64,000 bases of DNA from Pisaster brevispinus. Taxonomy: Eukaryota > Echinodermata > Asteroidea > Forcipulatida > Asteriidae. Made by a program: the position numbers and the translations under genes. The number at the start of each line of letters is the position of its first letter. Positions within the stretch are counted from its first letter, which is position 1. Where the stretch lies: positions 5,593,501 to 5,657,500 of the forward strand of contig JAMKCF010000014.1 of assembly GCA_023634235.1 (NCBI GenBank). The letters run 5' to 3'. Shown piece by piece: positions 50,701-56,700 of the stretch. The notes below the pieces were generated by a model. The model made no database searches. It saw nothing but the letters and a program-made list of their open reading frames with translations, and was not told the DNA's origin.

Positions 50701-53700
50701 GCGTACCAACTAACAGTACACACACCAGTGAACACCAACTCAGAAAGTAGAGACACATCACCGAGCACCTGATGATGATGATGATTAGAGCACACTAGTT
50801 CATTAGCCTTTTTGAGATTTGGTGGACACAACAGGAGTGCACTGTTTTGTTTGGGTGTATACAAATTGAGCCAATTCTAATCATTGATCATGCCCACTCC
50901 CATACCTCAGAATGGCTTCGTGAAGAACAAACCAACCAGCTCTTTTCAGAACCAGCTCTTCACCAATGTCAAATATTAATTTAATTGATACACATTTTCC
51001 GGGGGGGGGGGGGAATTCCATGGAAAATTTGTTAATCGTTCCACACTTTCATTGCAAATCCAAGAAAATGTGTTTATGTAAATAATACAAATTTAAATTT
51101 TCCTTTTTTTTCAGCATCTAAACAAAGGCCTGAGATCTCCTACCCAACAAGTTTCGAGCACACTGTCCATGTTGGATTTGACAGTATCACTGGGGAATTT
51201 ACGGTGAGAAAGCTATGGAGCCACTCTTTAATCATCGTCATGATATATATATGATAACCAAACCAAAGAATTATAAATGCAATCAAGAGAATTGGTGTTT
51301 TGGCAACCTTTTATACTAATGTGAAATCTCATTACACTGCTGTTATGCAACAACCTTGTAGAGGTAGAAATGCTTTATCTTTGCTTAAACATAACCACTG
51401 AATTTGCTCAAATTTTCACAAGTTGCTTGTATAAATTTAGATTTAGATTTATTAAAATTGACAAATTTCGTGACCTGAAGGTCAAATTACAGAGTCATTG
51501 GTCATTACAATAGTTAAGAAAAGAAAAGACATACATTATTTTTAAAAGACACATAAATAGAAAAAAAATTAAAGATATATAAATATATAAGAAAAAAAGA
51601 ATGCACACACGCCAATAAAACAAAAACAGAACCACATAAACAAAAGAAACACCACACTTTAGTTTAAAAGGGAAATGGAATAATTAAAAGAGACAAAAAT
51701 GTATAAATAAAAACATGAAATAAATTAAGAACCTCACTCCGACCAACACACACAATAAACAAGAGAAATATTTAAGAATTAATTAAACCTATGAAATAAG
51801 GAACAGGGCTATTTTTAAAACGACTGGATCTAGTGGGGATGGTTGAAACATGATGACTATTTCGGAGGTTTCGACCATGACTCTCATGCCTGGTAGGGGG
51901 AAGGAGGTCTTTAGTGCGAGGGTTATTAGCAAGTTCATTAGCAAAACGCCTGCAGTGTGCCTCTCTCCTACCAGCCAGAGAGTCAAGGTAAATCATGAAC
52001 CTCCATGGTTTTATGGCGTGCTTGGAGGATTTGAATTAATCTACTCTGCCCAAAACCAAAGGACTACTTTCCCTTTCTTGGTTATTGTACAATGATGTTT
52101 AGCATAGATTTGTGTACAATGGGCGCATATACTTTTAGGCCATGGATGCAAGAAAGGTTTGAAGACTTTGCTCACTCTAACCTACAACGTAGAACACCAT
52201 CCTTTGCATTGGTAGTAGTGATCATACCTTACATGTTAACCATAACTTCTCTAAGTATTGACCCACATTGTAATCCACTTTTGTATGTCTTTTTTGTTGT
52301 TGACAGGGTATGCCAGAACACTGGGCTAAGCTGTTGATGTCATCCCAGATTACCAAGACAGAACAGAAGAAGAATCCACAGGCTGTGCTGGATGCACTCA
52401 AGTTCTATGACGATAGTAACACTAATAGGAACGAGAAGTTTATGACACAACAGAAAGTCATTCTTAGTAAGTATGGGTTGTCAGCTGATGGGCATGAGAA
52501 ACGGACAGAGCAATAGACCCTTTTACTTTCCACCAAATTGCTTTTTAAAGAGCATTGTCATTAGATGGAAAATGTATAAACATGCATGCATCGATACACA
52601 AACATTGACAAGTGCTTGTCCTCCTTTGTCTTTTATAAATTAGGCAAAGGTTCATCATTGGAGGAAACATTTGAACAAACTTCAATTAATTCTGTAAGTA
52701 TTCTAAAGAAAAATGGATTGTAATAAAGCCTTGCATAAGTTAGGTTTCAGGGTGTGAGCATTGAATGAAATTTGTTAACACTTGAAGACCATAAAGGTGT
52801 CAAATAGTTAACAAACCTCCCAAATGCTTATATGCGTGTAGGCTTGTTTGTCCCAAATGCTTATATGCGTGTAGGCTTGTTTGTCCCAAATGCTTATATG
52901 CGTGTACATGTAGGCTTGTTTGTCCCAAATGCTTATATGCGTGTACATGTAGGCTTGTTTGTCCCAAATGCTTATATGCGTGTAGGCTTGTTTGTCCCAT
53001 TCAGCCCCCAAACGTCATGTTCTGAAATCAAATTCCAATTCAACAAGTAGTTCATTGTAAGAAAGAATGTTTGTATCTAATAGAAATCCAAAAGTATGTT
53101 CTCTTAAGCATTAAGTATGCCGATCATTAAAACATTTGTCCTTGAATTCAATGAGGAGTTTTGGGTCTTACAAAAAATGTCATACCTTTAACATGTCTTT
53201 GCTGTGTAGAGTGACGGTAAGGTGCCAATCTTGATTCTAACTCAATTTTGTTTTATTGTTCTGCCAAAGGAAACTTTAAGGTCAAGGAGATATTTTTAGA
53301 CAACTTTTTTTAAAATTTCATAATTGATATTGGTATTAAATGCTTATACGGCACTTCTGATCAGATGTACACATGTTTGCAGCATGATGTGTTGTGTCCA
53401 ATACTTCCTGAATGGAGCAAGTCTTTTGAAGTACATTTTGAGTGGTCTGCCGCAGACCATAAAATACATGTAGGGAATACATTTTCAAACTGTGTACTTT
53501 CTTATAATCTTCCAGAAGCATCCTAATACTCCTAAGTCACCATATACTGAAGAAGATGACGAAGATGATGATGCCCCACCAGCGATTGCCCCAAGACCTG
53601 AACATACAAAATCTAAAGTAAGTCAGTCCAATATACTCCCATGAGCTATTGCCCCAAGACCTGAACATACAAAATCTAAAGTAAGTCAGTCCAATATACT

Positions 53701-56700
53701 CCCATGAGCTATTGCCCCAAGACCTGAACATACAAAATCTAAAGTAAGTCAGTCCAATATACTCCCATCAGATATTGCCCCAAGACCTGAACATATAAAA
53801 TCTAAAGTAAGTCAGTCCAATATACTCCCATCAGATATTGCCCCAAGACCTGAACATATAAAATCTAAAGTAAGTCAGTCCAATATACTCCCATGAGCTA
53901 TTGCCCCAAGACCTGAACATACAAAATCTAAAGTAAGTCAGTCCAATATACTCCCATCAGATATTGCCCCAAGACCTGAACATATAAAATCTAAAGTAAG
54001 TCAGTCCAATATACTCCCATGAGCTATTGCCCCAAGACCTGAACATACAAAATCTAAAGTAAGTCAGTCCAATATACTCCCATGAGCTATTGCCCCAAGA
54101 CCTGAACATACAAAATCTAAAGTAAGTCAGTCCAATATACTCCCATGAGCTATTGCCCCAAGACCTGAACATACAAAATCTAAAGTAAGTCAGTCCAATA
54201 TACTCCCATCAGATATTGCCCCAAGACCTGAACATATAAAATCTAAAGTAAGTCAGTCCAATATACTCCCATGAGCTATTGCCCCAAGACCTGAACATAC
54301 AAAATCTGAAGTAAGTCAGTCCAATATACTCCCATCAGATATTGCCCCAAGACCTGAACATACAAAATCTGAAGTAAGTCAGTCCAATATACTCCCATCA
54401 GATATTGCCCCAAGACCTGAACATAAAAAATCTGAAGCTTTGTATTGTAAGAAAGTTTGTCAGACCTTCTTTTTGTTATCCTTTCCTTGCTTAACTTGTA
54501 TTTATTTGCGTTTACTTTGTTCATATATTGTCTAAAGCAGATAAGAAGCTGTTAAAACAGTCATACAACTTCCTTCCTAATCCAAATCTACCTTGTACCT
54601 ATTTGACATGAATGTTACTTAATACCATCGTGTTGTAGTATTACTCACGGATTGAACCACCTGCTGAGCCTAGCCCTCCACCAGTCACCCCACCTCCACC
54701 TGCTGCTTCAACTAATACTGAAACCAGCAGCGTACAGAGGCCTCGTGACAGACAAAAGAAAAAGAAGATGAGTGATGAAGAAATACTTGAAAGACTTCGT
54801 AAGTAATCTCAGAATTATTCACGGCAGCATTAGAAAGGTTTATGTGGCATCTTTACTTTAAGAGGAGATGGTAGTCACTAGTTTTTGTGGTAAGATAAGA
54901 AAAGGTCAATTAGTCTTGTCCAAAAAAGAAGTTGGCAATATTGTTTGTCTTACATGAACTTCCCTATCCTTATTATTCCCTATTTATATGTACATGTAAT
55001 TAAGAAAAGAAACCACTATAGACTGTGCAAGTCTCGCGCATATTTGTTTTTCCGGGACCAAGCTGGTCCCAGCCATATTGAGTTTTACATGTGCGTGATT
55101 CAGTTTCTTCAAGCACTTTAGTTTAACAGAGTTTATGGCTGAACAATTGTATGGTATTTTTGGGAAAAGTCAATTTAGCCATGAAATATATAAAGGTGAA
55201 AGGATTGTATTAAAAAATCAAGAAAGAAAACCTGAAATTAAGACATGACCCCCATTTCAGGTTACTTGTGAAAAATTCAGAATTTTGCCCAACTGACATT
55301 CATGTTGTCATTTAACCTATGTAATGGTCACACAAATTCGGGCAGGATTGACAGATGTGGTTTAAAAAAAAAATAAGCATCCTCATCCTAAGTTTTAATT
55401 TTGTTTTAATGTTAATTTGAACAAATTATTTGTGTTGTTTAAAAGTTTACATTTTATTTTTATGGAATTGCTGTGGGTATATTTATTTTCAAGAATTTTG
55501 TTAATAATTAAATTTTAAATGACGCTTTGGTTTTATAGAAAAATATAGTGTTTCGTTTGAGTCCTTTTGTTCATTATTGATATGCGCAAGACTTGCACAG
55601 TCTGTTGTATACAGGTGTTTTCCTTCAAGACAAAGTACAGAATTTGTAAATATAAAACAAAGGTTGTTTCAGTGTTGAAGGCCACTCAATCTTAATAAAG
55701 TTCATGTCACAACCAATCTCACAGAGAATGTCATCAGTTGGTGGAAATAGCATTGGATCAAGACTCTCAAAATCACCATTGCATAGTGGTGAAATTACTG
55801 GAGAATTTACTCTACTAAGTTTACTGGAAGAAAACAAAGTTCTGTACATTCAGTCTATATACATGTTTTCTCGCAGGGCAAATTGTGAGCGTTGGAGACC
55901 CTAAGAAGAAATACACCAAATTGGAGAAGATTGGTCAGGGTGCATCTGGGGTTGTGTATACAGCAATAGAGATTGGAACTGGTCAAGAGGTAAATACTTT
56001 GTACAGTCTTATTAGAATGGGCATTGAAGATCAAATGGTCAGTCTTGACTCTCCTGTAAATCATCAAGTCGTTCACCTTTAAAGACCATTCATTTCAATA
56101 TAATCATTAAGACGTGTTTGAAGTAAAACTGTCTGGAAAAACATTTTGAAAATCAAAATTGAGGATATTGACTATTTTTGTTGAGAGGATTGTAGCTCAA
56201 TTCTTGCTGCCATTTGCAGCTGCTACAGGCATTTTGTACAATGGAGGACTGGGATCTAACAGAGGGTAAAAGGGCAAGTTTTGATTTTCAAGTAAAGTCA
56301 CAAGTCAGTTAAAGGGCAAGTCTCAAGAGCAGGTAAGAACAGGGAAGTCTTTCCAAAACAAAAGTTGAAGGCTCTTTGACCATAGAATTTTGTGGAAACA
56401 GTAGATTGCATCAGTAAGGATTGGCAGCAGAACGAAGAGGATGAACAGGAAATGCATTTATGCAGAAGATCAGATTAATAGACACAACAGGCAATTTTAT
56501 CGGGAGCCAGTGGAGTTCCTGTAAGATAGGAGTGATATGTTGAGAACGAGATGTGCATGAGACAAGGTGAGCACCAGTCTTTTGAACTGTACTGCATCAA
56601 TAAGATACTTTTCTTTTTTCTTGAAGGTCGCCATTAAGCAGATGAATCTACAGCAGCAACCCAAGAAAGAGTTGATAATTAATGAGATTCTAGTCATGCG

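What the first reader, a model, noticed from the sequence alone, without database searches (positions are those of the whole stretch)
53585..54437. A splice donor captured inside a 63-bp minisatellite: 13 consecutive 5' splice sites in PAK
Seen: the end of PAK exon 5, its gtaagt donor and the first intron bases are tandemly repeated 14 times at exactly 63 bp, a multiple of three. Each unit re-encodes the PIX-binding core (IAPRPEHTKS). The first linker puts TGA in frame, so use of any donor after the first would end the protein right after the PIX motif. That would leave a kinase-less fragment with the CRIB and autoinhibitory region, a form that could act as a trans-inhibitor. Several later linkers are open. 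Copy number could tune splicing or isoform ratio.
Basis: partly seen in the sequence, partly recalled or inferred. Interest (0 to 1): 0.85.

Follow-up and report, generated by a model that had tools for sequence, protein, structure and literature searches.

The report
Sea-star PAK gene with repeated splice donors
In a sea star's PAK kinase gene, the end of one exon together with its splice signal is present 13 times in a row, and one public protein record suggests that some messages run on into the copies and would make a PAK fragment without its kinase, although whether this matters to the animal is unknown.

Summary
Fourteen 63-bp units (53585-54437) repeat the last 33 nt of coding exon 5 of a PAK gene plus the intron start; 13 carry a GTAAGT donor. 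Reading past donor 1 meets an in-frame TGA (53642-53644). The host is a sea star close to Asterias rubens. Six of six named echinoderm PAKs aligned have the first-donor junction, so that donor is productive. A length-restricted search found one unnamed record, P0121 (213 aa, 1,385-bp contig): exons 1-5 joined, identical to the window over 192 residues, then through donor 1, linker 1 and past donor 2 to a stop. So a transcript for a kinase-less PAK with CRIB/autoinhibitory region and PIX motif probably exists. Later-donor use and intron retention cannot be told apart; no activity, abundance or copy-number effect is shown. The kind is known: lancelet 'mirages' and the human IFI6 (6-16) minisatellite. 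Capture of a boundary by one of this gene's six minisatellites is unsurprising by chance (P about 0.27; a donor, 0.14). Best reading: a passenger boundary-spanning minisatellite with leaky, non-productive splicing.

The parts
47736..62266 (+). PAK (group I p21-activated kinase) gene, inferred 13 coding exons, 532 aa: 47736-47910, 51115-51203, 52307-52466, 52644-52693, 53516-53617, 54639-54798, 55877-55989, 56627-56764, 58827-58919, 60205-60304, 60874-61070, 61703-61840, 62183-62266
   Evidence: exon joins give one open frame; 98% identical to Asterias rubens PAK 3-like; Pfam PBD and Pkinase; a 12-nt microexon at 53210-53221 was in the model and was dropped because none of 6 relatives has it; 532 aa without it
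53516..53617 (+). coding exon 5; its last 33 nt (53585-53617) are unit 1 of the array; encodes the PIX-binding segment PPAIAPRPEHTKSK
   Evidence: a 35-aa stretch around it matches the 22-residue PAK1 peptide chain 1zsg_B, E 0.00019 (that this peptide is the PIX ligand is recalled)
53585..54437 (+). 63-bp minisatellite, 14 units (unit 14 truncated, no donor)
53618..53623 (+). first donor GTAAGT, the productive one
   Evidence: gives full PAK; 6 of 6 named echinoderm relatives aligned have this junction without insert
53681..54379 (+). donors 2-13 (GTAAGT at 53681 + 63k, k = 0..11), nearly the same strength as donor 1 in a simple matrix
   Evidence: 3.76 for donors 1-11, 3.53 for 12-13; matrix from recalled human frequencies
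53642..53644 (+). in-frame TGA in linker 1, met by any read past donor 1
54639..54798 (+). exon 6 (called exon 7 in the scripts, which counted the dropped microexon), acceptor gtgttgtag|TATTAC

Best explanation
This is a boundary-spanning minisatellite. A 63-bp stretch across the exon 5 donor was duplicated once and then grew and was homogenised by slippage or unequal exchange. The first donor makes normal PAK mRNA. The other 12 donors are decoys. A minority of transcripts miss the first donors, by retaining the intron or by splicing at a later donor, and read into linker 1, which ends the protein just after the PIX motif. Most such RNA is probably non-productive (decay or low translation). 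Shown: the array, the frame consequences, the conserved first-donor junction, and one record that fits a read-through transcript. Inferred: the growth mechanism, the minority status, and the fate of the RNA.
For: Array and frames. First-donor junction in 6 of 6 named echinoderm relatives aligned; also in two unnamed relatives read (P0005, N-terminally short, and P0015). P0121: all 200 residues of the predicted truncated form at 100% identity, then ELLPQDPDIQNLK and the end, i.e. unit 2 read one base out of frame up to AAG TAA, which is donor 2 left unspliced. This needs 3 nucleotide edits from the window, against 5 if donor 2 were joined to the next exon; joining donor 3 also costs 3, since the protein ends before it. 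Its exons span 5.9 kb of genome, so a 1,385-bp contig holding them joined should be cDNA (or a retrocopy of one). The gene carries six minisatellites, and random placement of their units captures some boundary in 27% of trials and a donor in 14%. Donor invariance matches the rest of the unit: only 4 of 63 positions vary among units 1-13, 2 exonic and 2 in the linker, so there is no sign that donors are specially kept. RNA folding of the first 236 nt is ordinary (z -1.06).
Against: P0121 is a single unnamed record (1 member, 1 contig) whose DNA I could not read, and its frame slip could be an assembly error. No RNA counts were available; minority status rests on protein records only. Donors 2-13 are nearly as strong as donor 1, and a pair of equal donors often favours the one nearer the acceptor (recalled), so read-through may be common.
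Confidence: 0.55

Rival explanations
1. Fully inert passenger, as reported for lancelet mirages: only donor 1 is ever spliced, and P0121 is merely partly processed pre-mRNA with the array intron still in place.
For: Lancelet Adh, TnC and globin mirages are reported not to disturb normal mRNA, though the globin paper notes that the repeats could serve as cryptic sites (passages; section). P0121 reads past donor 2 with that donor intact, which intron retention explains without any use of later donors.
Against: Thirteen nearly equal donors in one intron. In human IFI6, two downstream repeat units are used as donors (passage).
Confidence: 0.3
2. A functional isoform switch: array-extended transcripts are stable and make a natural PAK inhibitor (autoinhibitory region plus PIX-binding motif without kinase), with array length setting the ratio.
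For: P0121 encodes that product apart from its 13-residue tail. A PAK1 83-149 peptide acts in trans on all three group I PAKs, and polyproline peptides have been used to block Nck or PIX binding (passage of PMC6110733). The window allele and the P0121 allele both end the frame shortly after the motif.
Against: One record; premature stops upstream of many junctions normally trigger decay (recalled); no copy-number, tissue or protein data; no sequence sign of selection on donors or linkers.
Confidence: 0.12
3. The copy number, or the array itself, is an assembly artefact.
For: Near-identical 63-bp units are hard for short reads; the assembly could not be searched (19 genome-search requests did not complete).
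Against: The two linker types and the internal variants are ordered irregularly. P0121 independently shows exon, linker 1 and unit 2 in a row.
Confidence: 0.03

Closest known systems
Lancelet (amphioxus) 'mirages': minisatellites spanning exon-intron boundaries (Adh3, TnC, globins, PGBD5)
   Same: Short tandem units copied across a splice boundary; many units keep splice signals; the authentic site serves the normal mRNA
   Different: Sea star, not lancelet; 14 near-identical units, all at a donor; a truncated-transcript record exists, whereas the lancelet cases are reported as harmless to splicing
[quoted passage not shown] title seen in reference lists, use of two downstream units from a passage in PMC4526556)
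   Same: A minisatellite at an exon end supplies a donor in several units, and more than one is used in RNA
   Different: In IFI6 the alternatives encode full protein isoforms (that they are in-frame additions is recalled); here every alternative is truncating in this allele, and later-donor use is unproven
Variable internal tandem repeats at human exon-intron boundaries (PMC2812944, passages)
   Same: Minisatellite growth at boundaries changes splicing
   Different: Those cases concern novel introns in recently duplicated human paralogues
Polyubiquitin UBC and dual-specific splice sites in tandem repeats (PMC10809524, passages)
   Same: Repeated units with repeated splice sites and stochastic outcomes
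   Different: Needs one site to serve as donor and acceptor (AG|GT, recalled); no AGGT occurs in this array

Membership tests
Mirage-type minisatellite | short tandem units spanning an exon-intron boundary | tested here: met
Mirage-type minisatellite | splice signal carried in many units | tested here: met
   13 of 14 units
Mirage-type minisatellite | length instability between alleles or cells | tested here: inconclusive
   P0121 implies 3 nucleotide edits from the window including a net one-base shift in linker 1, but copy number is unknown
Mirage-type minisatellite | normal mRNA not disturbed | tested here: inconclusive
   conserved junction in 6 of 6 named relatives, but a read-through record exists
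Minisatellite with multiple functional donors (IFI6 type) | two or more units used as donors in RNA | tested here: inconclusive
   P0121 passes donors 1 and 2; the donor finally used, if any, is not visible
Dual-specific or recursive splice sites | AG|GT at the site | tested here: not met
   0 AGGT in 53585-54437
Group I PAK | PBD/CRIB, PIX-binding segment and kinase domain | tested here: met

The most novel reading that the evidence does not exclude
A variable-length donor array makes a natural dominant-negative PAK (autoinhibitory region plus PIX decoy, no kinase) in sea stars, with array length and linker type setting the dose. The linkers suggest that the repeats were once open in frame (exon CCA GCG; linkers TCA GAT or TGA GCT) and that the stop arose later.
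Probability: 0.1. Interest if true: 0.8.

Novelty: new member of a known kind. Interest (0 to 1): 0.5.

Why it matters
Thirteen nearly identical donors in a row, with sequence differences between units that work as partial barcodes, are a natural experiment on how the spliceosome chooses among equal 5' splice sites. The outcome can be read from RNA, and a public record already suggests that donor 1 is sometimes missed. It also extends boundary-spanning minisatellites, which the papers I found describe in lancelets and humans, to an echinoderm signalling gene.

Tried and rejected
Amphioxus as host: suspected from the minisatellites, rejected because the closest PAK is Asterias rubens at 98% while the best Branchiostoma matches are at 69%.

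Recursive or dual-specific splicing: rejected, no AGGT in the array. Unit as a microexon: considered on paper only; CAG or GAG plus 35 nt would shift the frame and leave introns of under 30 nt. RNA structure hiding donors: not supported over the first 236 nt (z -1.06; 33 of 200 shuffles fold at least as well). A search for a repeat-only peptide (62 aa) found nothing at E up to 1 among 590 candidates. Special retention of donors by selection: no sign. The script had one exon a base short and gave a broken frame; one search corrected it. A 12-nt microexon (SDGK) in that gene model was dropped; some searches were run with it included, and the lengths 536 and 204 aa include it. A first estimate of boundary capture (0.42 expected, 26 boundaries) also counted it; one search did not.

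Not answered: the assembly-wide search for further copies (genome search, 19 identical requests). Paper searches that gave nothing of use: 0 papers; 0 papers; listing only.

Full report
What is there. The window carries, on the + strand, a group I PAK gene at 47736-62266. Thirteen inferred coding exons join into one frame (less a 12-nt microexon that none of six relatives has) and give a protein of 532 aa with PBD and kinase domains. The best database match is PAK 3-like of Asterias rubens at 98% identity, then Acanthaster planci at 87%. Apart from that microexon, the window protein differs from A. rubens by 6 substitutions and one single-residue gap, so the host is a sea star close to A. rubens and probably another species; the species itself was not determined.

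The array. Fourteen units sit at exactly 63 bp spacing from 53585. Each complete unit repeats the last 33 nt of coding exon 5 and 30 nt of linker. Thirteen have AAA or GAA|GTAAGT; the 14th breaks off. Among units 1-13 only 4 of 63 positions vary (positions 23 and 31 exonic, 59 and 62 in the linker). Linkers are of two kinds, CATGAGCT (in-frame TGA; 7 of 13) and CATCAGAT (open; 6 of 13), in the order S S o o S o S S S o S o o (S stop, o open) read from the unit table. The exon itself has CACCAGCG at that place, 13 of 16 bases matching over 53575-53590 and 53638-53653 (strings printed). The simplest history is that the founding copy took about 43 nt of exon and 20 nt of intron, that its linker first read open (CCA to TCA), and that TGA and GAT arose later in separate unit lineages. 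This is inference from parsimony.

Donor strength. With a matrix of recalled human frequencies, donors 1-11 score 3.76 and donors 12-13 score 3.53; donor 1 ranks fifth among the 12 donors of the gene model, which run from -0.05 to 6.89. Of 31 GT sites in the gene that score within 0.5 of donor 1 or better, 13 are in this array.

Coding consequence. Donor 1 joined to 54639 gives the whole kinase. Donors 2-13 give one and the same truncated product in 12 of 12 cases, because linker 1 carries TGA at 53642-53644. Six named echinoderm relatives were aligned, of 120 listed and 7,986 scored; 6 of 6 have the first-donor junction without insert. Two unnamed relatives read later, P0005 (N-terminally short) and P0015, have it too.

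A transcript record. Searching with the truncated 200-aa form, which by the tool's length rule admits only short proteins, gave 118 matches of 188 candidates. I read two of the 118 sequences, P0121 and P0122. P0121 covers all 200 residues at 100% identity; the other 117 are at most 70% identical, and the next in rank (P0122, an ordinary but short sea-urchin PAK) is at 61%. P0121 comes from a 1,385-bp NCBI contig with no name (1 member, 1 contig). It contains exons 1-5 joined, which lie over 5.9 kb in the genome, so it should derive from cDNA, or from a retrocopy of one. Its first 192 residues have 0 differences from the window and 3 from A. rubens, so it probably comes from the window's species. 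After HTKSK it continues VSQSNILP, the translation of donor 1 and linker 1, then ELLPQDPDIQNLK and the end. In the window, unit 2 read one base out of frame gives ELLPQDLNIQNLK and stop. The least costly explanation needs 3 nucleotide edits against the window with donor 2 left unspliced, against 5 if donor 2, and 26 if donor 1, were joined to the next exon; joining donor 3 also costs 3, because the tail ends before that junction. So this RNA passed donors 1 and 2; what happened later (a later donor, or the intron kept) lies outside the protein. The record also differs from the window allele, either by real polymorphism or by assembly error.

Function. The product holds the PBD/CRIB and the following autoinhibitory stretch plus one intact PIX-binding segment, and no kinase. 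A peptide from PAK1 83-149 expressed in cells acts in trans on all three group I PAKs, and polyproline peptides that block PIX or Nck binding have been used as inhibitors (passage of PMC6110733). But a stop upstream of many exon junctions usually leads to decay (recalled), no protein evidence exists here, and nothing in the sequence shows selection on donors or linkers. I therefore rank leaky, non-productive splicing at a passenger minisatellite first.

Chance. The gene holds six minisatellites with units of 43, 39, 63, 37, 38 (or 19) and 16 bp. Dropping such units at random in the gene captures some exon boundary in 27% and a donor in 14% of 200,000 trials. Donor-like repeats occur elsewhere in the same gene: the 37-bp array at 57129-58722 has TCTGTAAGC 42 times, though none of these is among the 31 sites above.

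What is known. Lancelet mirages are the same kind of structure. They are reported not to interfere with regular splicing, although the globin paper adds that repeat units could act as cryptic sites and reports differing copy numbers between haplotypes (abstract and passages of PMC3087553; passage and section 17 of PMC3902484). The human IFI6 minisatellite gives multiple splice donors: Turri et al. 1995 was seen only as a title in reference lists, its own record is not held, and the statement that two downstream repeat units act as donors comes from a passage of PMC4526556. Human internal tandem repeats at exon-intron boundaries can change splicing (passages of PMC2812944), and UBC shows tandem repeats with dual-specific sites (passages of PMC10809524). 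A search for sea star, minisatellite and splice site together found no paper in the held library, which is open-licence only. The statement that an equal pair of donors often favours the acceptor-proximal one is recalled; Hodson 2012 was seen as a title only.

Verdict. The deciding experiment is simple long-read RNA across exons 4-6.

Noticed in passing
57129-58722: 37-bp x 43 minisatellite (99% matches) in a PAK intron; TCT|GTAAGC, a donor-like site, occurs in it 42 times.
   Followed up: partly
61846-62005: 16-bp x 10 minisatellite that begins at the sixth base of the intron after PAK exon 12 (ends 61840), next to but not copying the splice site.
   Followed up: partly
32452-32747: 57-bp x 5.2 minisatellite open in one + frame (19-aa repeat PVSSHAQQISSIPPATPTA) inside ORF 32336-32953, which has no Pfam match; a kinase-like ORF follows at 33493-34614.
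   Followed up: partly
4188-6440 (-): Class C receptor-like ORF with ANF_receptor, NCD3G and 7tm_3 domains.
   Followed up: partly
26336-29793 (-): Several overlapping frame-shifted ORFs that look like a decayed retroelement (impression from translations; no Pfam match for the two pieces tried).
   Followed up: partly
54438-54452: Just after the last unit, TATT|GTAAGA is a further donor-like site; it was not scored.
   Followed up: no
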